Shown one piece after another: positions 3,611-10,918 of a stretch of 10,918 nt of DNA. Source of the stretch: Thermoflexales bacterium (lineage in GTDB: Bacteria; Chloroflexota; Anaerolineae; Fen-1058); NCBI GenBank assembly GCA_030834835.1, contig JAUQXD010000486.1, positions 1 through 10,918 of the forward strand, written 5' to 3'. Made by a program: the position numbers and the translations under genes. Each line of letters opens with the position of its first letter. The first letter of the stretch is position 1. The notes under the pieces were generated by a model. The model saw nothing but the letters and a program-made list of their open reading frames with translations, searched no databases and was not told the DNA's origin.

Positions 3611-4780
3611 ATGAATTATTACACCTGGCAGCAGTCTAAGATCGCCGTGCGCGGGCGTGAGTTCACCATCGCCACCAAACCCGGTCTGCCGGATACGGTG
3701 ATGGCCGAACGTCTGCTGGCTGACGCCATCGACGTTGAACCCGGCGAGCGCGTGGTCGATCTGCGCTGCGGCACGGGCCTGGTCGGTGTGGCGCTGCTGG
3801 CGCGTGGTGCAGACGTGACGCTGTATGACGATAACATCGTGGCGGTGGAAGCGACTAAGCGCACGCTGGCGGCTAACCGAACGGCTGGTGTCATTCCCGC
3901 ACGTTTTTGGCGGGAATCCACTGAGGGTGTGGGCGTGGATGCCCGACAAAAACACTCGGGCATGACGGTCTCTCCCAGTTATGATGTGGCGATCATCAAC
4001 GCGCCCAAAGGACGAGAAGTCGGCCATCGGCTTATCCGATCGGCGATCGGCGCCCTGAAGGCCGGGGGGCGGCTGTACATCGGCGGGGCGAATCGCGGCG
4101 GCGTAAAGAGTCTGATCGACGATGCGAGTGACCTCATCGGGTCAATGAACGTCGTTAAGATCAAGGCCGCGCATCGGGTGGCCGTCGGTGTCCGTGGCGA
4201 ATCGATCGGCCTGAGTGACGATCCAGATTTTACGGAACACACGATCACCGTGCGCGATCAGACGTGGCGCTATGCGGCGTGCCCCGGCGTATTCGCTTGG
4301 GATCGATTGGATGACGGCAGCCGGGCGTTGATCGAAACGATGCAGTTGAAGCCCACGGATTCAGTACTGGATTTGGGTTGTGGTAGCGGCTTAGTCGGTC
4401 TGGTAGCGGCCACGTTGGCCGATCGCGTGGTGAGTGTAGACGCCAGCGCGCTGGCCGTCGAGGCGACCCGTCGGACGTATGAGATCAACCGGGTATTGAA
4501 GGCCGAAGTGCTGTTCAGTGATTGCGCCTCCGCCGTATTCGATCGCGCGTTTGACACGGTCGTGACCAATCCGCCGTTTCATCAGGGTGTGGGCACGGAC
4601 TATGCGGTGGCGCGGCAATTCGTGATCGATGCGGCGCGCGTGCTGAAGCCGGGTGGGACGTTGTGGCTGGTGGCGAATCGGTTCTTGCGCTATGAACGCG
4701 AGCTGGCCGATCGATTTGCCGACGTCCGCATGGCGTATGAGGATAATCGGTTCCGGGTGTTGATGGCGATCAAGGGATAA
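3611..4780 (+). CDS. RsmC/RlmG-like two-domain class I SAM-dependent methyltransferase
   Basis: Protein of 389 residues with two Rossmann methyltransferase halves, as in the 16S/23S rRNA guanine-N2 methyltransferases RsmC and RlmG (about 340-380 residues). The C-terminal half is intact: motif I V252-L-D-L-G-C-G-S-G binds SAM, acidic 'VVSVDAS' follows, and N320-P-P-F-H-Q-G matches the catalytic NPPFH(Q/x)G signature. It ends with 'LKPGGTLWLVANRFLRYE'. The N-terminal half is degenerate: 'VVDLRCGTGLVG' (48-59) is kept, but N130-A-P-K replaces NPPF, as expected for the substrate-recognition half. Residues about 94-119 are encoded by a palindromic insertion (3890-3966) and should form an extra loop. 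No strong ribosome-binding site precedes ATG 3611. The target base is inferred only; another N2-guanine or small-molecule substrate is possible. Confidence 0.85.
   Translation: MNYYTWQQSKIAVRGREFTIATKPGLPDTVMAERLLADAIDVEPGERVVDLRCGTGLVGVALLARGADVTLYDDNIVAVEATKRTLAANRTAGVIPARFWRESTEGVGVDARQKHSGMTVSPSYDVAIINAPKGREVGHRLIRSAIGALKAGGRLYIGGANRGGVKSLIDDASDLIGSMNVVKIKAAHRVAVGVRGESIGLSDDPDFTEHTITVRDQTWRYAACPGVFAWDRLDDGSRALIETMQLKPTDSVLDLGCGSGLVGLVAATLADRVVSVDASALAVEATRRTYEINRVLKAEVLFSDCASAVFDRAFDTVVTNPPFHQGVGTDYAVARQFVIDAARVLKPGGTLWLVANRFLRYERELADRFADVRMAYEDNRFRVLMAIKG
3890..3966. repeat. Inverted pair of REP-like hairpins inside the methyltransferase coding frame
   Basis: Two 31-base units in opposite orientation (3890-3920 and 3936-3966) are separated by 15 bases. 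Unit 1 folds as ATTCCCGC (3893-3900) / GCGGGAAT (3910-3917) around a 9-base loop. Unit 2 folds as ATGCCCGA (3939-3946) / TCGGGCAT (3956-3963), also around 9 bases. Unit 1 matches the reverse complement of unit 2 at 25 of 31 positions. Two of the differences are paired changes that keep the stem (T-A versus G-C, and C-G versus A-T). GGT flanks both ends (3887-3889, 3967-3969), which may be chance or a short target duplication. The outer GTCAT...ATCCA ends resemble REP-type repeats known from other bacteria. Confidence 0.8.
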
Positions 4781-4805
4781 ACGCTGCTACGTCAACACCG
4801 ACCTG

Positions 4806-4872
4806 CCACAAAAGAACGCAGAGATCGCACAGGCAGCCGATTTTCTTTCGTGCGCTTTGTGGTCTTGTGCGG
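4806..4872. repeat. Degenerate ~9-base repeats in inverted arrangement between convergent genes
   Basis: CCACAAAAG, AACGCAGAG and ATCGCACAG run consecutively from 4806 to 4832. On the other strand, the 4845-4872 segment contains CCACAAAG followed by CGCACGAAAG, of the same flavour. CCACAAA (4806-4812) is perfectly complementary to TTTGTGG (4856-4862). The periodicity is weak and the unit boundaries of the right half are uncertain. It fills the 102-base gap between the + strand methyltransferase and the - strand transporter, where a two-way terminator would be expected. Confidence 0.4.
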
Positions 4873-4882
4873 CGACCTGGCA

Positions 4883-5821
4883 TTATTTGCCAATCGGGGG
4901 CGCGGCGGGCTGCGGATTGCGCGCCTTGCGTGCGAGAAGGTTCAGCCCGCCCATGCCCGGCTCAAACAGCATCAGCAAGAGACTGCAAATCAGAATCACC
5001 GCGCCGATCCACTGGCGCAGCACCAGTTGTTCGCCCAGGGTGGCGATTGCCAGGAAGACCGCCACCAGAATCTCGGTCACGCCCAGCAGCGCGGTTTGAA
5101 CACTACCCAGCTGCTTGACGCCCATGAACATCATCAAGCGCGAGAAGACCGTAATCGCGCCCAGGGCAAACATCGGCGGCAGGCCGGCCACGGTCACATC
5201 GCCGGGGCCGTGAATCAGGAAGGCCACCCACACCACCGCCGTCATCGCCGTCAGGACGTACAACGCCACGGTTTGCGGCGGCATTTCATACAGCACGCGC
5301 TGGCTCACCGCCAGGTGCAGCGCGTACATGAAGCCCGCGCCCAACATTAGGCCCGCGCCCACCGGGTCGATCTGGCCGCTGCCCACCTGCACCAACAACG
5401 CCACCGCGATCAGCGCCATCACCAGCCGCACTTTGGTCCAATTGGAAATCGCCTGGCCGTCGAGCCGCCGCACGACGACGACGAACAGCGGATACAGCGC
5501 GTACAACATCTGGCCGATGCCGGCGTCGATGCGGGTGAGGCCGTTGTAGTACAGCAGCGAACTGAAGCCATTGAGCGCGCCGGCGGCGAAGGAGATCAAG
5601 ATGCCGGCCGGATAGATGAAGATGAATTTGCGGCGGCGTTTGCTGGAGAGAAAAATAGCCCACAGCACCAGCGCCGCGGCCAGCGTGCGGAGCGCCGTCA
5701 GACTGTACGCGTCCATCCCGGCCAGGTAGGCCTGTTTGCCCAGGATGGGCGTGGTGCCCAGCACCAGCGCCGAGAGCAGCGCCGCGCGGATGCCATTGCG
5801 TTGATTGCGGGACGGAGACAT
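4883..5821 (-). CDS. EamA/DMT-superfamily transporter
   Basis: Integral membrane protein of 312 residues with about ten hydrophobic segments, starting at about residue 12 ('AALLSALVLGTTPILGKQAY') and ending at about 288, in two tandem EamA halves. Family features are visible: the 'ALRTLAAALVL' segment of TM2, 'ALYPLFVVVVRRLDGQ' in the first half, and the late 'LGVTEILVAVFLAIATLGEQLV' segment typical of EamA proteins (usual length about 280-310). The tail after the last segment is short, basic and Pro-rich. DMT exporters move amino acids, nucleosides or other metabolites by proton antiport; the substrate cannot be read from sequence. The gene starts 60 bases after the histidine kinase stop on the same strand, so co-transcription is plausible. 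The spacer holds a possible weak hairpin (5832-5840 with 5865-5872, one bulge). Location next to a threonine-synthase-like enzyme makes an amino acid a reasonable guess, nothing more. Confidence 0.88.
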   Translation of the reverse strand: MSPSRNQRNGIRAALLSALVLGTTPILGKQAYLAGMDAYSLTALRTLAAALVLWAIFLSSKRRRKFIFIYPAGILISFAAGALNGFSSLLYYNGLTRIDAGIGQMLYALYPLFVVVVRRLDGQAISNWTKVRLVMALIAVALLVQVGSGQIDPVGAGLMLGAGFMYALHLAVSQRVLYEMPPQTVALYVLTAMTAVVWVAFLIHGPGDVTVAGLPPMFALGAITVFSRLMMFMGVKQLGSVQTALLGVTEILVAVFLAIATLGEQLVLRQWIGAVILICSLLLMLFEPGMGGLNLLARKARNPQPAAPPIGK

Positions 5822-5881
5822 ACGTCACTTCGGTTCCGGGCTGAAAACGCGCTCATACCGTCGCCCCGGACCACGGCTGAA

Positions 5882-7150
5882 TTACTTGCTGTCGGGCTGT
5901 CGGGGCGGCGGCGGTGTCAGCGGCAGCAGAATGTGAAAGCGGCTGCCCGGCAGACGGGTGGCATCCAGCCCTTCGCTCTCCACCCAGATGCGGCCGCCAT
6001 GCGCGCGAATGATCCCATGCGCCACGGCCAAGCCCAGCCCGAAGCCGCCGCCCAGAAAATTGTTGCGATGGGTGGAATGAAAGTCGGTGTCTTCCAGCAC
6101 GTAAAACTTGTCGAAGATGCGTTCTTGCTCGGCCCGATCGATCCCGATGCCCGTATCGGCCACCACCAGGTGGATGGCCTCCTCCTCTGGCACGGCGTCC
6201 AGGCTGACCGTGCCGCCATCGGGCGTGTACTTGATCGCGTTGTCGAGCAGGTTGGTGATGGCGCGACGCAGGTAGTTGGGATCGGCCGACAGCGTCGGCA
6301 CGCGCGATAGATCGCCGACGACCAGCTGGAGATTGCGCTGCTTCACAATCGGTTGCAAGTCCGCGACAATGGCCTGCGTCATCGCCGCCAGGTCCACTGG
6401 CTTGAAGACCAACTCCAGTTGCTCGGAATCGATCAGCGACACATTGATGACCGCATCGACGACTTCGTTGAGCCGCCGGGTCGCGCCTGTGATGCGATCG
6501 ATCACGTCATTCAGGTGATCGTCGGCGCTGCCGCGCTGCTGCATCTCCATCTTCAGCAGACTGGTATAGCCGTAGATCAACGTGGTCGGCGTGCGCAGTT
6601 CGTGCCCTGCCAGGATCACAAAGTCCTTCTTCATCTTGTCCATGCGGCGCAGTTCGGCGTTGGCCTTCTGCAACTCAGCCACGGTCTTCTCCAACCGCGC
6701 GCCCAGTTCGTTGCGATATTCCTCCAGCCGCTGGACCTTGACATCTTCCGACACTTTCTCGCGCGCGCCGGCCAGGAACTTGTGGATGATGCGCGGTAGC
6801 GCATCCACGTCGATGGGTTTGGTGATGTAGCCATCGCAGCCGGCCACTAAGGCCCGATCGCGATCGGTGGCGAGGGTGGCGGCCGTCAGGGCAATGACGG
6901 GCACGTGGCGGGTTTCCGGCATTTCTTTGAAGCGCGTGGCGACTTCGTGGCCGGTCATGCCGCTGATATTGATGTCGGTCAAGATCAGGGCCGGCCGCAC
7001 CTGGCGCGCCAGTTCCAGCCCGCTCAGGCCGTCTTCGGCCACCGTCACGTGAAAGCCTTCGGCCTCCAGCAAGCGCTGCACCAGCCGGCGGCTGCTGGGA
7101 TCGTCTTCGATGTACAAAATCTTGATCGGGCCTAATGGTTGAGTGGGCAT
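5882..7150 (-). CDS. Soluble histidine kinase with N-terminal receiver domain (REC-HisKA-HATPase_c)
   Basis: Protein of 422 residues from ATG 7150. REC domain, about 9-126: acidic E15/D16/D17, phospho-acceptor Asp59 ('ILTDINISG'), Thr89 and Lys111 ('ITKP'). About 130-175 is a charged, heptad-like linker ('LEKTVAELQKANAELRRMD') that probably forms a coiled coil. HisKA begins at about 172, with phospho-acceptor His183 in 'GHELRTP'. The HATPase_c domain has an N box ('LLDNAIKYTPDGG'), G1 ('VADTGIGI'), F box ('IFDKFY') and G2 ('GGFGLGLAVAHGIIRAHGG'). There is no transmembrane segment and no PAS, GAF or other sensor, so input probably comes through the REC domain from another kinase. An alternative start at 7204 would add 18 residues encoded by repeat DNA and is disfavoured. 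The neighbouring PLP-enzyme gene 111 bases upstream ends in a REC domain and is a candidate partner. Confidence 0.92.
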   Translation of the reverse strand: MPTQPLGPIKILYIEDDPSSRRLVQRLLEAEGFHVTVAEDGLSGLELARQVRPALILTDINISGMTGHEVATRFKEMPETRHVPVIALTAATLATDRDRALVAGCDGYITKPIDVDALPRIIHKFLAGAREKVSEDVKVQRLEEYRNELGARLEKTVAELQKANAELRRMDKMKKDFVILAGHELRTPTTLIYGYTSLLKMEMQQRGSADDHLNDVIDRITGATRRLNEVVDAVINVSLIDSEQLELVFKPVDLAAMTQAIVADLQPIVKQRNLQLVVGDLSRVPTLSADPNYLRRAITNLLDNAIKYTPDGGTVSLDAVPEEEAIHLVVADTGIGIDRAEQERIFDKFYVLEDTDFHSTHRNNFLGGGFGLGLAVAHGIIRAHGGRIWVESEGLDATRLPGSRFHILLPLTPPPPRQPDSK

Positions 7151-7155
7151 AGTAG

Positions 7156-7159
7156 CCTC
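7156..7159 (-). promoter_or_regulatory. Ribosome-binding site deciding the histidine kinase start
   Basis: On the - strand GAGG lies five bases before ATG 7150, which begins 'MPTQPLGPIKILYIEDD', a normal lead-in to a REC domain. Confidence 0.65.
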
Positions 7160-7166
7160 GTGCGTC

Positions 7167-7258
7167 GGTAGATTGGTAACCGGTAGATTAGTAAATTGGT
7201 CCAATCGGCTGATTGACCCAGCTACTAACTTACCAATCTACCAATTTACTGGTTGACC
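7167..7258. repeat. Long imperfect palindrome built from degenerate octanucleotides
   Basis: On the + strand the left arm reads GGTAGATT, GGTAACC, GGTAGATT, AGTAAATT, GGTCCAATC (7167-7206). The right arm, read on the - strand, gives AGTAAATT, GGTAGATT, GGTAAGTT, AGTAGCTG, GGTCAATC. The arms meet at a 4-base centre GGCT (7207-7210). Perfect inverted matches include GGTAGATTGGTAA (7167-7179 with 7230-7242) and AGTAAATTGGT (7190-7200 with 7240-7250). The element occupies nearly all of the spacer between the PLP-enzyme/REC gene and the histidine kinase gene. It could attenuate or process a joint transcript. Confidence 0.75.
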
Positions 7259-7261
7259 AAG

Positions 7262-8911
7262 TCACTGCTTCAGTACTTCCAGCATCTTATCCACAATGTC
7301 CTGTTCGTTGAACGCGCCCTTCTGCATCAGGGACTGGGCTTTGCCGGACAGGCGCTGTTTCTCGATCGCCGTGAGTTCCTTGGCGGTCACCACGATGACG
7401 GGAATCCGGCTCAGTTCGCGATCGGTGCGCAGCACATCGAGCACGGCGAAGCCGTCCATCTCCGGCATCATCAGATCGAGCAAGATCAGATCGGGCGGCT
7501 GGGCGCGCACCATCTCCAGCCCGATGCGGCCGTTGACGGCCTCGCGGACCGAATATTTGCCGTGCGCCTGCAGGATGCGGCGCAAGAGTAGCGACGCTTC
7601 CGGCGTATCGTCCATGATCAGGATGTCGCGCATCCGATCGTCCAACCGCTCCAACGCGGACAACAGGCCTTCCTGCGGCGCGGCGGGCGACTTCGGCGCT
7701 TCGATGCTGCTCGACCATTCCTCGCCGAGCAATTCTTTCTCCACCGGGAACGTGTGGCCGGAGCAGTTGACGACTACGACCTCATCCCGCTTGATGGTCT
7801 GTTGGCCGATCAGTTTGAACAGGCCCGCGAAGGCGACACCGGTCGCCGTTTCCACCGACAACCCATCCATCTTGGCCATGACGTGCATCGCGCGGAAGGC
7901 TTCTTCGTCGGACACCATCTCCATAGCGCCGCCGGTCTGCTGGATGATGCGGCGCAGTTCGGTGTAGGCCAGGCCGGGATTGCCCGTCGCCAGCGTGGCG
8001 ATGTGCGTCTGCGGATCGGTCACGATGTCGGCCGTGTCGCGGCCGGCCTTGAAGGCGGTGACCATCGGCGCGCAGCCGCTGGACTGCACGATGGCGATCT
8101 TCGGCAGCTTATCGATCAGACCCATCGCGTACAGTTCCTCGAAACCGCGCCACGTCCCGATCGGTCCCATGCCGCCGCTGACGGCCTGGATGTACCAATC
8201 GGGTGCGCGCCACTTACCGTAGCCGTCGAGCATGCAGCCGAGTTGATCGCACACTTCGTAGGCCAGCGTTTTCATGCTCTGCCGGGCGCTGATCGATTTC
8301 AAGCCTTTGTCCAGAAACAGGCCGCGATGCTGTGCGAAGGAGGCCGCGATCTCTTTGCATTGATCGTACGTGCCCGTGATCTTGACGACCTCGGAGCCAT
8401 ACAGGGCCACTTCGCGCATTTTGTCGGCGGGCACCAGGCTGGTGAGGAACGCCCACAGCTTGATGCCCGCGCGCGCGCAATAGGCCGAGTACGAAATGGC
8501 GACGTTGCCGGTGGAGGCGACGACGGCCTCGGTGATGCCCGCTTCCTTCATCGAACTGATCGCCAGCGAGGCCTGCCGGTCTTTGAACGAGCCGGTGGGG
8601 CCTTGCCGCTCATCCTTGATGTAGATGTGATCGTGCCCCAGCATGGTGCCGACGTTGACGGAGCGCAGCAACGGCGTACCGCCCTCACCCATCGTGATGA
8701 TGTTGTCGGCATTGCGCAGCGGCAGCAGTTCGCGATAGCGCCACAGGCTGAACGGCCGCTCCGGCCAGCGGGGCAGGGCGTCACGCTTGATCGCCTCGAG
8801 GTCGTACTGAACTTCGAGGTAATCGTACTTGCAGTTGGGGCAGGCATTGGGCGCCTGGGTAAACGTCAAGCGTTGGCCGCAGCGCGGGCATTCTAAGATC
8901 GGATCGTGCAT
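7262..8911 (-). CDS. Threonine-synthase-like PLP enzyme fused to a C-terminal response-regulator receiver domain
   Basis: One uninterrupted 549-residue frame. Residues 1-30 are a zinc ribbon (Cys8, Cys11, Cys24, Cys27: 'CPRCG', 'CPNCKY'), as in many archaeal-type threonine synthases. Residues about 55-399 are a fold-type II PLP enzyme: 'GEGGTPLLRS', 'IYIKDERQGPTGSFKDRQ' with Schiff-base Lys110, 'ASTGN' (133-136), 'AVSGGMGPIGTWRGF' and the glycine-rich phosphate-binding region. The family makes threonine from O-phosphohomoserine. Here 'FKDRQ' replaces the more usual 'FKDRG', and the C-terminal PLP-region motif reads 'NCSGHTFPVEKE', so a related beta-replacement or elimination reaction is possible and no gene symbol is assigned. 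After a linker (about 400-427) comes a full REC domain (428-549): D434/D435, phospho-acceptor Asp479 in 'LLDLMMPEMDG', Thr509, Lys531. All REC key residues are present. The fusion is the notable point of this window. A histidine kinase gene follows on the same strand. Confidence 0.9.
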   Translation of the reverse strand: MHDPILECPRCGQRLTFTQAPNACPNCKYDYLEVQYDLEAIKRDALPRWPERPFSLWRYRELLPLRNADNIITMGEGGTPLLRSVNVGTMLGHDHIYIKDERQGPTGSFKDRQASLAISSMKEAGITEAVVASTGNVAISYSAYCARAGIKLWAFLTSLVPADKMREVALYGSEVVKITGTYDQCKEIAASFAQHRGLFLDKGLKSISARQSMKTLAYEVCDQLGCMLDGYGKWRAPDWYIQAVSGGMGPIGTWRGFEELYAMGLIDKLPKIAIVQSSGCAPMVTAFKAGRDTADIVTDPQTHIATLATGNPGLAYTELRRIIQQTGGAMEMVSDEEAFRAMHVMAKMDGLSVETATGVAFAGLFKLIGQQTIKRDEVVVVNCSGHTFPVEKELLGEEWSSSIEAPKSPAAPQEGLLSALERLDDRMRDILIMDDTPEASLLLRRILQAHGKYSVREAVNGRIGLEMVRAQPPDLILLDLMMPEMDGFAVLDVLRTDRELSRIPVIVVTAKELTAIEKQRLSGKAQSLMQKGAFNEQDIVDKMLEVLKQ

Positions 8912-8916
8912 GATTG

Positions 8917-8921
8917 TCCTT
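8917..8921 (-). promoter_or_regulatory. Ribosome-binding site of the PLP-enzyme/REC fusion gene
   Basis: On the - strand AAGGA lies five bases before ATG 8911. It directly abuts the heptad repeat array, which fills the rest of the leader. Confidence 0.75.
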
Positions 8922-9026
8922 GATCAGTAATGAGTGACGAGTTATGAGTAATGCGTGTTGCGTGTTGCGTGACGAGTGATCACTCCTGGTCTGATTCATT
9001 GAGCATTGTTAATTGTGCATTACTGA
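8921..9026. repeat. Degenerate heptanucleotide arrays, 9 + 5 units
   Basis: From 8921 to 8983 nine gapless 7-base units follow each other: TGATCAG, TAATGAG, TGACGAG, TTATGAG, TAATGCG, TGTTGCG twice, TGACGAG, TGATCAC. After an 8-base break, five more units follow from 8992 to 9026: TGATTCA, TTGAGCA, TTGTTAA, TTGTGCA, TTACTGA. The last unit contains the SDR gene's stop codon (TAA on the - strand). GAGTGATCACTC (8974-8985) is a perfect 12-base palindrome at the break. The first block shares units with the array at 2533-2567. The whole SDR-to-PLP-enzyme spacer, including the leader of the fusion gene, is made of this repeat; no clear promoter is visible in it. Confidence 0.8.
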
Positions 9027-9790
9027 ATCGTCCAACCTCCGTCGACCATCAACGTCTCGCCCGTGATGAGCGAAGCAGCGGGCGAAGCCAAAAACACGAC
9101 CGGACCTGCCACGTCCATCGGATCGCCGATGCGACCAAGGGGAATCCGCTGGCGCACAGAGGCGCGAAAAGCCGGATCGTCCAGCCACTTCCTCGTTCCC
9201 GGCGTGGCGATGAAGGTGGGCGCGACTGCATTTACCGTGATGTTGTACTGCGCCCACTCCAGGGCCAGGCACTTCGTCAAATGCGAGATGGCCGCCTTGG
9301 TCATGCAATAGACCGATTCGGTGGGCAGCGCCACGAAACCAGCCTGCGAACTAATGTTGATGATACGTCCGCGCCGCTGCTTGATCATCACTTTGCCCAC
9401 AGCCTGCGCCGTAAAGAACGTGCCCTTGAGATTGACGGCCAGCGTCGCGTCGAAGTCCTGTTCGGTGACGCGCTCGGCCGGGTTGGGCGCACCGATGCCG
9501 GCGTTGTTCACCAGAATATCGATACGCTTGAAATGTCGCACACCCGCCTGAACGGCATCGTTGATTTCGTCGAGGCGGGTGACATCCATCTGCACTGGCA
9601 GGACTTCCCGGCCCAGTTTCTGGATGCGCCTGACCAACGTTCGTGCACTGGATACTTGCCTCAAGCCCAGGATGATGTCGGCTCCGGCTTGAGCCAAGGC
9701 CAGCGCACAGGCACGGCCAATGCCTTTGGATGAAGCGGTGACCAGGGCTACTTGACCTTGCAGGGTGAATGAGGGTTGCGTGTTGGTCAT
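9020..9790 (-). CDS. Short-chain dehydrogenase/reductase (classical SDR)
   Basis: Protein of 256 residues from ATG 9790; a GTG three codons upstream (9799) is also open. This is the usual classical SDR length. The cofactor motif is T18-A-S-S-K-G-I-G25, with Ala in place of the first Gly of TGxxxGxG. Asp69 ('MDV') contacts the adenine ring, N95-N-A-G98 stabilises the sheet, and the catalytic set is Asn120, Ser148, Tyr161 and Lys165 ('YCMTK'). The C-terminal part has 'NAVAPTFIATPGTRKW' and 'VVFLASPAASLITGETLMVDGG', typical of SDRs that reduce keto groups or oxidise sugar acids and alcohols. The substrate is not readable; BLAST labels for this kind range from 3-oxoacyl-ACP reductase to gluconate 5-dehydrogenase. 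It starts 22 bases after the upstream hypothetical gene, and its stop lies inside a heptad repeat. Confidence 0.93.
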   Translation of the reverse strand: MTNTQPSFTLQGQVALVTASSKGIGRACALALAQAGADIILGLRQVSSARTLVRRIQKLGREVLPVQMDVTRLDEINDAVQAGVRHFKRIDILVNNAGIGAPNPAERVTEQDFDATLAVNLKGTFFTAQAVGKVMIKQRRGRIINISSQAGFVALPTESVYCMTKAAISHLTKCLALEWAQYNITVNAVAPTFIATPGTRKWLDDPAFRASVRQRIPLGRIGDPMDVAGPVVFLASPAASLITGETLMVDGGWTIQ

Positions 9791-9812
9791 GTCTTCCACT
9801 TCTATCCGTGCT

Positions 9813-10171
9813 TTAGTCAGCCGCTTGAGTGAGCTTAACGCCTGCCACGTACAGATGACCGTTGTCGAGTTCGCCTGCTATGTCAGGGATTAACTTCCGC
9901 AAATTTTTGGCGTAGTTGGTCTGCCAGAATGCCATCAACTTGCTGCGCGCCGCCTCATTGATGTGAATGGCGTCTTGATCATCGATTAACAGCATGGCGA
10001 CGTCATTGATGTGCTCGGTGACGGCGAAGAAATAATCATCGTTGTCGTCACGCTTCGATTGCAGGTACTCCGCGATGTGCTCCTGCAATTCAAATTCAAA
10101 CAGGGCCAGCGTCAATGGGCCATCTTCAGCAGGGCTTTCTTTAGGTTCTTCTCGATGATCTTCTTGCGCAT
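9813..10171 (-). CDS. Hypothetical protein, apparently interrupted by a frameshift
   Basis: The convincing protein sequence is 'LTLALFEFELQEHIAEYL' to 'GVKLTQAAD', about 100 residues, acidic and helical, including 'YFFAVTEHINDVAMLLIDDQD'. The longest open frame for it goes back to 10223, but that extension ('HAQEDHREEPKESPAEDG') looks non-coding and overlaps the upstream gene by 47 bases. A better N-terminus lies in another frame: GTG 10180 or ATG 10171 gives 'MRKKIIEKNLKKALLKMAH' and then stops (TGA 10112-10114). That stop overlaps a TTG (10113-10115) of the downstream frame. One extra base near the CCC at 10117-10119 would join the two into a smooth protein of about 120 residues. It may be a true frameshift, a sequencing error, a -1 ribosomal slip, or a small ORF coupled to a TTG start. 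I do not recognise the family. Confidence 0.55.
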
Positions 10172-10176
10172 GGGTT

Positions 10177-10437
10177 TCACGGCTGCTTGTCCTCACTGTA
10201 CTCCGCCCAGTACAGCACATCACGATAATCTAGTCTGGCGGCGGTCACGTACTGCAGGAGTTTGTCCACGTCGCCTTCGCTGAGTTTGAGTACCGCGATC
10301 TGGACTCGTTCGCGCTCGCGTTCGTAAGGCTCGGTGCTGTAGGCGTCCAGCACGGCCAGCACGCTGGCTGTATCCTCATCGGGTAGCCACTGCCTGACGG
10401 CCGCCAGCACATCTTCGCGTGAATATGGCACAGACAT
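10177..10437 (-). CDS. Small hypothetical protein, about 86 residues
   Basis: Starts at ATG 10437 ('MSVPYSREDVLAAV'), four bases after the adenylate cyclase stop; another ATG at 10449 overlaps that stop and would add four residues. The protein is helical and charged. The C-terminal half, 'VQIAVLKLSEGDVDKLLQY' followed by 'AARLDYRDVLYWAEY', matches a recurring small-protein pattern I recall from Chloroflexota and cyanobacteria without known function ('AILKL..GD...L......A..DYRDVL'). No signal peptide, membrane segment or metal motif is visible. Tight spacing on both sides (its TGA overlaps GTG 10180 of the next gene) indicates translation in one operon with the adenylate cyclase and the following hypothetical gene. 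Confidence 0.75.
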   Translation of the reverse strand: MSVPYSREDVLAAVRQWLPDEDTASVLAVLDAYSTEPYERERERVQIAVLKLSEGDVDKLLQYVTAARLDYRDVLYWAEYSEDKQP

Positions 10438-10441
10438 ACTC

Positions 10442-10918
10442 TTACGCATGAGTTTGTGCCAGGCCGCCGGCCTCTGTGGCTTGCTCAATTGGATAGACAG
10501 TCAAAGGCTCTGGCTTGCCCTTGACTGTGATCTCGCGTTTTGCGCCAGGCAGTATATCCTGGTGGGATGCCAATTGAACACTATCTGAAATCAGGATTTC
10601 GCCGCCTTGGGCGCTGGATTCGATTCGCTTGGCTACGTTCACCACGTCGCCGATGACGTCATAGAACTTGACGGCCGAACTACCCAGTAGTCCTTCCATC
10701 ACCACCCCGGCGTGCAAGCCAATCCCGACGCCAAGATTCTGTTCGGCCAACTTCTGATTGATTTGCCTGCGCAGTTGGATCGCGGCGTCGATCGCGTTCC
10801 CGGCCGTCGCATAAACGGCGAGTAGTTCATCGGCAGAAAATTTGAGTTTGATCGGGCGATAGTTGGCGCAAATACCTTCGGCCAGGCCGTAATACCGGTT
10901 AAGCAGCGTCGCCACTTG
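10442..10918 (-). CDS. Class III adenylate/guanylate cyclase, C-terminal part (5' end outside window)
   Basis: The frame is open to the window edge, so only about 158 residues are seen, most of a class III cyclase catalytic domain. 'LLNRYYGLAEGI' is the early helix. 'KLKFSADELLAVY' carries the adenine-selecting Lys and a metal-binding Asp, with Ala where most relatives have Gly before the Asp. 'VGIGLHAGVVMEGLLGSS' is the central strand, and 'FYDVIGDVVNVAKRIESSA' carries the transition-state Asn and Arg. 'GEILISDS' and the 'VKGKPEPLTVYPI' tail complete the domain. The Lys and Asp (VIGD) favour ATP over GTP. The first metal Asp and any sensor domains lie outside the window. It heads a probable operon with two small hypothetical genes and perhaps the SDR gene. 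Confidence 0.92.
   Translation of the reverse strand, partial: QVATLLNRYYGLAEGICANYRPIKLKFSADELLAVYATAGNAIDAAIQLRRQINQKLAEQNLGVGIGLHAGVVMEGLLGSSAVKFYDVIGDVVNVAKRIESSAQGGEILISDSVQLASHQDILPGAKREITVKGKPEPLTVYPIEQATEAGGLAQTHA

What the first reader, a model, noticed from the sequence alone, without database searches (positions are those of the whole stretch)
7262..8911. Threonine-synthase-like PLP enzyme fused to a complete response-regulator receiver domain
One open frame joins a zinc ribbon plus fold-type II PLP enzyme (Lys110, 'ASTGN') to a full REC domain with every key residue (D434/D435, D479, T509, K531). REC domains normally control DNA binding, diguanylate cyclases, methylesterases or kinases. 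A REC domain attached to an amino-acid biosynthetic enzyme would mean direct phosphorylation control of a metabolic step. The motifs are visible; the regulatory role is inference.
Basis: partly seen in the sequence, partly recalled or inferred. Interest (0 to 1): 0.87.

Follow-up and report, generated by a model that had tools for sequence, protein, structure and literature searches.

The report
Receiver domain on threonine-synthase-like enzyme
A vitamin-B6 enzyme resembling threonine synthase is joined in one protein to the on/off switch of a bacterial signalling system and usually sits beside a kinase that could flip that switch, so these bacteria may control one metabolic step directly by phosphorylation.

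Summary
One 549-aa MINUS-strand frame (8911..7262) carries a zinc-ribbon-like N-terminus, a PALP domain (211 bits) and a complete receiver domain (70.7 bits). It is no assembly accident: in 301 Chloroflexota genomes, 44 full-length fusions occur in 34 genomes, among them Herpetosiphon aurantiacus; a profile search put 7179 of 7999 scored candidates at E<=1e-130.

The setting is stronger evidence than the architecture. A same-strand histidine kinase is the direct neighbour of 45 of 49 fusion genes, against 1 of 33 stand-alone relatives; a same-strand EamA transporter follows within two genes in 32 of 49 against 0 of 33.

It is probably not the cell's threonine synthase. The window's genome has a separate protein far above the ThrC cut-off, the fusion is below it, and a substrate-loop motif found in 39 of 42 stand-alone relatives is in 0 of 278 listed homologues and 0 of 49 locus fusions.

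Best reading: a response regulator whose output is an amino-acid PLP enzyme of unknown substrate. Receiver-enzyme fusions are a known kind; I found this output type in none of my paper searches. Phosphorylation and activity are untested.

The parts
7262..8911 (-). Fusion gene: zinc-ribbon-like N-terminus + PALP (fold-type II PLP enzyme) + receiver domain, 549 aa
   Evidence: Open frame; Pfam; 119 of 120 listed homologues, the window's own included, with the same two domains
8831..8890 (-). Four-cysteine zinc-ribbon-like segment (Cys8, 11, 24, 27)
   Evidence: All four cysteines in 60 of 60 aligned fusions; zinc binding itself not tested
7760..8698 (-). PALP catalytic domain (residues 72-384); PLP lysine Lys110 at 8582-8584
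7625..7759 (-). Linker, residues 385-429, with the recurrent EGLLSALE..D segment next to REC
   Evidence: pLDDT under 50 at 387-425 in the model; segment visible in alignment A1
7289..7624 (-). Receiver domain (residues 430-541); phospho-acceptor Asp479 at 7475-7477
   Evidence: 70.7 bits; D435/D479/K531 in 60 of 60
5882..7204 (-). REC-HisKA-HATPase_c histidine kinase, next gene downstream (57-base gap); candidate phosphodonor
   Evidence: Pfam; H-box GHELRTP and N-box NLLDNAIKYT; a same-strand kinase is the direct neighbour in 45 of 49 loci
4883..5821 (-). EamA/DMT transporter, two genes downstream; candidate carrier of substrate or product
   Evidence: EamA 94.9 bits; TIGR00950 51.9 bits, below its cut-off 230.2; same-strand EamA within two genes downstream in 32 of 49 loci
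9020..9799 (-). SDR dehydrogenase, upstream same strand, 108-base gap; membership of the unit uncertain
   Evidence: adh_short_C2 229.1 bits; no homologue of it among the ORFs of the 50 other loci at the settings

Best explanation
The protein is a response regulator whose output domain is a PLP-dependent amino-acid enzyme of the threonine-synthase/cysteate-synthase branch. A histidine kinase encoded next door (here the REC-HisKA-HATPase protein; in most relatives a large upstream kinase) phosphorylates Asp479. The phosphorylated receiver changes shape or pairs with another receiver and, through the flexible linker, alters the PALP domain (dimeric in known threonine synthases, recalled), so that a beta- or gamma-replacement or elimination on an amino acid is switched by a signal directly rather than through transcription. 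The substrate is probably not O-phosphohomoserine as such, because the ThrC substrate loop is replaced. In the branch that includes the window, the EamA transporter probably moves the product or substrate across the membrane. Shown: domain order, conserved residues, one side of the tree, co-varying domains, kinase and transporter neighbours. Inferred: phosphotransfer, effect on activity, chemistry, transport role.
For: Complete, invariant REC pocket. Same-strand kinase directly adjacent in 45 of 49 anchored fusion loci; controls 0 of 20 stand-alone relatives elsewhere in the phylum and 1 of 13 stand-alone relatives in fusion-bearing genomes. Gaps are mostly a few to some tens of bases. In the second-copy and Herpetosiphon groups a stand-alone receiver gene follows in all 11 loci with an anchored kinase. 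Some relatives carry two or three receivers. PALP and REC distances co-vary (r 0.956, 0 of 999 permutations as high, 60 proteins). Fusion PALP domains lie on one side of a branch, 50 against 26 stand-alone rows, support 100/100. PLP-binding residues invariant. A separate protein over the ThrC cut-off in 5 of 7 fusion genomes. Loop motif P...EG.[KA][TSIV] in 0 of 278 listed homologues and 0 of 49 locus fusions against 39 of 42 stand-alone relatives.
Against: No biochemical evidence. The loci are related, so 45 of 49 is not 45 independent events. Four loci (L013, L103, L104, L135) show no full adjacent kinase in my ORF choice, and one of 13 same-genome controls (L176) does have a kinase neighbour. 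In the window the neighbouring kinase has no recognised sensor and carries its own N-terminal receiver. One of the eight fusion rows (G208) passes a ThrC cut-off, 309.1 against 303, and in G208 and in Herpetosiphon no other protein passes it. The interdomain placement in the model is not reliable (pTM 0.68, linker below 50).
Confidence: 0.58

Rival explanations
1. It is a true threonine synthase (O-phosphohomoserine to threonine) that gained a receiver, as an extra, signal-controlled isoenzyme.
For: Closest curated family is PRK08197 threonine synthase, 268.7 bits; one fusion (G208) passes the cut-off at 309.1 and is the only protein of its genome to do so; five anchored second-copy loci have a stand-alone PALP gene two genes downstream, and the two tested score about 577 bits as threonine synthase; the model aligns best with plant ThrC.
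Against: Window protein below both ThrC cut-offs (268.7 of 303; 154.4 of 167.1). The loop aligned with T. thermophilus residues 154-166, some of which I recall as phosphate ligands, is replaced in 278 of 278 listed homologues and 49 of 49 locus fusions.
Confidence: 0.2
2. The PALP part no longer makes a metabolite but serves as a PLP- or amino-acid-binding sensor or scaffold that works with the receiver, as fold-type I domains do in MocR-type regulators (recalled comparison).
For: The gene lies in signalling loci (kinases, stand-alone receivers, dCache-HAMP-GAF proteins, ParA-like ATPase), and a separate ThrC over the cut-off is present in 5 of 7 genomes.
Against: Catalytic lysine and many pocket residues invariant; an EamA transporter is close by in 32 of 49 loci; no DNA-binding domain is attached.
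Confidence: 0.14
3. The receiver serves another purpose than controlling catalysis: it docks the enzyme to the kinase complex or acts as a phosphate sink.
For: Linker is long and of very low model confidence; 32 of 44 upstream kinases carry receivers of their own.
Against: The residues of the phosphorylation switch, including T/S509 and K531, are conserved.
Confidence: 0.07
4. Frame or assembly artefact joining two genes.
For: The source assembly is fragmented (1452 contigs, 7.03% contamination).
Against: 44 full-length fusions in 34 genomes, three of them on contigs of 3.3 to 4.4 million bases and one on 6.3 million; thousands of scored homologues.
Confidence: 0.01

Closest known systems
Threonine synthase ThrC (NCBIfam NF006050/PRK08197, TIGR00260; structures 2c2b, 2zsj, 2d1f, 1uim)
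   Same: Fold, PLP lysine, STGN-type loop; alignment to NF006050 begins at residue 6, so the N-terminal segment is shared with that family; 25-34% identity with bacterial ThrC structures in the fold alignments
   Different: C-terminal receiver; loop P...EG.[KA] absent; SGGxGPxG and [ST]GHT in place of the loops of the stand-alone relatives; window protein below curated cut-offs
Cysteate synthase (TIGR03844; CapA2, 9k3c)
   Different: 105.3 bits against a cut-off of 324.9; no receiver
Response regulators with enzymatic output domains, including REC fused to metabolic enzymes (class described in PMC5847659, section 14 read)
   Same: REC in one chain with a metabolic-type enzyme; lineage-limited
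   Different: [quoted passage not shown] here the enzyme is N-terminal and REC C-terminal, and the family is spread over one phylum
PorX (REC plus PglZ-type domain; search listings only, domain make-up partly recalled)
   Same: A response regulator with an enzyme-like output that is no classical DNA-binding domain
   Different: Unrelated output domain and phylum

Membership tests
Two-component response regulator (PF00072 receiver) | Receiver domain above the curated score | tested here: met
   70.7 bits, cut-off 30.2
Two-component response regulator (PF00072 receiver) | Acidic pair, phospho-acceptor Asp, T/S and Lys | tested here: met
   434 D/E, D435, D479, 509 T/S, K531 in 60 of 60
Two-component response regulator (PF00072 receiver) | Candidate partner kinase encoded alongside | tested here: met
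   Window: kinase at 5882-7204, 57 bases away; same-strand kinase adjacent in 45 of 49, controls 1 of 33
Two-component response regulator (PF00072 receiver) | Phosphotransfer, and phosphorylation changes output | not testable with these tools
   Needs purified proteins
Threonine synthase (ThrC) | Curated equivalog score | tested here: not met
   Window: 268.7 of 303 (NF006050), 154.4 of 167.1 (TIGR00260); two other fusions below too; of eight fusion rows one, G208, passes at 309.1
Threonine synthase (ThrC) | PLP lysine and STGN loop | tested here: met
   60 of 60
Threonine synthase (ThrC) | Substrate loop P...EG.[KA][TSIV] (motif drawn up here from stand-alone relatives; its phosphate role is recalled) | tested here: not met
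   0 of 278 listed homologues and 0 of 49 locus fusions; 39 of 42 stand-alone relatives
Threonine synthase (ThrC) | O-phosphohomoserine turnover | not testable with these tools
   Assay needed
Cysteate synthase (TIGR03844) | Curated equivalog score | tested here: not met
   105.3 of 324.9; two other fusions 120.1 and 133.3
Response regulator with enzymatic output | REC and enzyme domain in one conserved chain | tested here: met
Response regulator with enzymatic output | Enzyme activity under control of the receiver | not testable with these tools
   Assay needed

The most novel reading that the evidence does not exclude
A phylum-wide, undescribed class of response regulators in which a kinase directly gates a PLP enzyme with a new amino-acid reaction, and kinase, enzyme and EamA transporter form a dedicated signal-to-secreted-metabolite circuit, with receiver number (one to three) tuning the response. 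The product might even be an intercellular signal.
Probability: 0.3. Interest if true: 0.82.

Novelty: new variant of a known kind. Interest (0 to 1): 0.62.

Why it matters
If the receiver gates catalysis, a two-component system here ends in flux through an amino-acid enzyme rather than in transcription, in a family with thousands of scored sequences, those with a printed organism name being Chloroflexota. The label 'threonine synthase' that many of them bear probably misleads metabolic reconstructions. Herpetosiphon aurantiacus, a cultured species, carries a copy beside an 1877-aa kinase, so phosphotransfer and enzyme assays are practical. The neighbouring genes (kinase, enzyme, transporter) give a direct route to the substrate.

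Tried and rejected
Artefact or split gene: rejected by 44 fusions in 34 of 301 genomes and 119 of 120 listed homologues.

Amino-acid-sensing dCache motif (recalled pattern, written as Y, 3-5 residues, R.WY) near the kinase: not found in 44 members of cluster c1, 41 of c2 or 3 of c17; the shorter R.WY occurs in 5 of 44 of c1 only. No support for amino-acid sensing by that motif.

Fusion outside Chloroflexota: among 43 genomes reached through loci of other labels, one (G320, behind L045, labelled Pleurocapsa minor MAG) has two fusions. It has no PsaA/PsaB match while the two cyanobacteria checked beside it have, so I treat its label as doubtful rather than as a cyanobacterial case. The sample is biased (genomes picked because a REC matched).

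Narrow loop motif: my first pattern, P[YFH][RYS].EG.K[TSIV], was drawn up from the alignment and gave 26 of 26 in much the same stand-alone rows, after three long-branch rows had been left out. On 13 further stand-alone relatives from fusion-bearing genomes it held in only 5. The wider P...EG.[KA][TSIV] holds in 27 of all 29 earlier rows and 12 of the 13 new ones; the misses are L128_2011, L150_4769 and L172. I use the wider one. [ST]GHT occurs in 1 of 42 stand-alone relatives (L175), outside the aligned place.

Riboswitch or RNA element: no Rfam match in the window at gathering score. Promoter- and terminator-like sites in 4780-10918: no more than in shuffles. EamA against solved structures: no match. 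PHROGs: six families of unknown function, matching the REC or PALP parts.

First tree contained wrong ORFs picked by my script for L162 and L163 and several long rows. I rebuilt it without those two, without S_L150_4769, S_L128_2011 and S_L147_15959, and without the own stand-alone rows L002 and L003. Both trees put the fusions on one side; both carry the program's warning that long branches meet.

In print: searches showed no paper on a PALP-REC protein; I saw listings and abstract starts there and opened few. Find-passages were read in PMC3368417, PMC5847659, PMC1183210 and PMC7090099 (there thrC is only an expression target), and section 14 of PMC5847659. Subscription papers are not in that library, and I did not read references 5 and 6 of that section, so an earlier mention is possible. 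The three other paper searches were on other points.

Full report

IT IS A REAL, LARGE FAMILY. A single-sequence search listed 120 best hits, the window's own protein among them. 119 carry both Pfam domains, and one is a 403-aa fragment on a 1270-base contig. In 301 Chloroflexota genomes, 72 had a match at E<=1e-60. Of the places listed, 44, in 34 genomes, are full-length fusions (E<=5.8e-161, 47-100% identity, matched to residue 544 or beyond), and 10 of these genomes have two. The other 45 places, at 34-38% identity, match only to about residue 380-415 and are taken as stand-alone enzymes (only four candidates per genome were scored, so further copies may be missed). By the listing, 26 of 37 other genomes of the same class have a fusion. 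Outside the class it is in seven genomes, six of them in one family. One of those lies on a contig of 6,346,587 bases, the published chromosome length of Herpetosiphon aurantiacus 114-95T, and a protein named from Herpetosiphon giganteus is 96% identical to that copy. Where the printed name of a listed homologue shows an organism, it is one of Chloroflexota (that Thermoflexales belongs there is recalled).

PROBABLY ONE ORIGIN, INHERITED TOGETHER. The 50 fusion PALP domains fall on one side of a branch from 26 stand-alone PALP proteins, support 100/100, with a warning about long branches. Pairwise distances of PALP and REC correlate at 0.956 over 60 proteins, with 0 of 999 permutations as high. 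This fits a single old fusion. Of the 120 best profile hits, 13 are 693-844 aa long. Three of these were tested and have two or three receivers, and a fourth shows two by eye.

THE SETTING. I fetched 40 fusion regions of the 44 places (the window's was in hand, three of the family of Herpetosiphon were left out) and had 10 from a contig scan, plus the window: 51 loci. My script anchored 49; L127 and L137 were not anchored. In 45 of 49 a same-strand histidine kinase ORF is the direct neighbour, in 44 of them upstream. The four misses are L013 (a REC piece only), L103, L104 and L135. Controls by the same criteria: 20 of the 45 stand-alone places, only one of them in the window's class: 0 of 20 with a kinase neighbour, 0 of 20 with EamA. 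Since those come mostly from other classes, I added 13 stand-alone relatives lying in fusion-bearing genomes: 1 of 13 with a kinase neighbour (L176), 0 of 13 with EamA. Same-strand EamA lies within two genes downstream of the fusion in 32 of 49. The loci are related, so these are not independent events. L127, the second copy in the window's own genome, has by eye a 1226-aa kinase directly upstream and two receiver ORFs downstream, then a GNAT acetyltransferase. Of the 44 upstream kinases, 32 carry a receiver of their own; the 11 of the second-copy and Herpetosiphon groups do not, and in those 11 a stand-alone receiver gene follows the fusion. One main-branch kinase tested by Pfam (L109) is a PAS/GAF hybrid with two receivers. 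In the window the order is SDR, fusion, REC-HisKA-HATPase kinase, EamA. The 62%-identical relative in L101 has a kinase on each side, the downstream one of the window's type.

WHAT THE ENZYME PROBABLY IS NOT. The window protein misses the curated ThrC cut-offs (268.7 of 303 and 154.4 of 167.1) and cysteate synthase (105.3 of 324.9). A second-copy fusion and the Herpetosiphon fusion miss them too. Against this, of eight fusion rows the G208 one passes at 309.1. The window's genome has a separate protein at 571 bits (G000:C835). Of seven fusion-bearing genomes, five have a stand-alone protein over the cut-off; in G208 the only hit over it is the fusion, and in Herpetosiphon (G110) nothing passes, other ThrC-like proteins scoring 207.7 or less. 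The loop motif P...EG.[KA][TSIV] is in 39 of 42 stand-alone relatives, and in 0 of 278 listed homologues (all three searches, window's own protein and one fragment included) and 0 of 49 locus fusions; SGGxGPxG is in 278 of 278, 49 of 49 and 0 of 42. A narrower form of the loop motif that I first drew from the same rows held in only 5 of the 13 added relatives, so the stand-alone set is itself mixed. By the alignments this loop covers T. thermophilus ThrC residues 154-166. That Asn154, Ser155 and Arg160 hold the substrate phosphate is my recollection, not a tool result. The PLP lysine and STGN loop are invariant in 60 of 60.

MECHANISM. Best supported: kinase to Asp479, then a receiver change, then altered activity of the PALP part; product or substrate carried by EamA in the main branch. 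The first arrow rests on conserved residues and gene neighbourhood. The second and third are inference from established receiver biology. The transport role is inference from gene order only; the transporter scores far below any specific family. The SDR gene upstream may or may not belong, since no homologue of it turned up in the other loci at the settings.

KNOWN OR NEW. That receivers are attached to metabolic enzymes, placing them under environmental control, is stated for bacteria and archaea in PMC5847659, section 14. My paper searches on this point showed no account of a PALP-REC protein, but the library lacks most subscription journals. I therefore rate it a new variant of a known kind: a large, lineage-wide output class, probably of one origin, that databases label 'threonine synthase', 'pyridoxal-phosphate dependent enzyme' or 'hypothetical protein', with a kinase gene next door.

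Noticed in passing
L127:6967-13966: The window's own genome carries a second fusion (G000:C1425) in the order kinase (1226 aa), fusion, two receiver ORFs, GNAT acetyltransferase; the Herpetosiphon locus L140 has a GNAT gene just before its kinase too.
   Followed up: partly
P0121, P0122, P0153, P0156: Longer relatives with two or three tandem receivers after the PALP domain.
   Followed up: partly
L109:9661-16210 and similar loci: Many main-branch loci carry, upstream of the kinase, a ParA/MinD-like AAA_31 ATPase (cluster c5, 20 loci) and proteins of cluster c1 (33 loci; the one tested is dCache-HAMP-GAF), in the same order; no role known to me.
   Followed up: no
L129, L130, L132, L135, L136: Second-copy fusions have a stand-alone PALP gene two genes downstream (two tested, about 577 bits as threonine synthase against a cut-off of 303).
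   Followed up: partly
L045 (genome G320): MAG labelled Pleurocapsa minor has two fusions but no PsaA/PsaB match; the label may be wrong.
   Followed up: partly
window 10442-10918 (-): Adenylate/guanylate cyclase catalytic domain cut off by the contig end, followed by two small ORFs (10177-10488, 9813-10223) without Pfam match.
   Followed up: no
window 3611-4780 (+): Methyltransferase-small-domain protein (MTS 212 bits, two stretches), perhaps of the RsmC/RlmG type; that type name is recalled.
   Followed up: no
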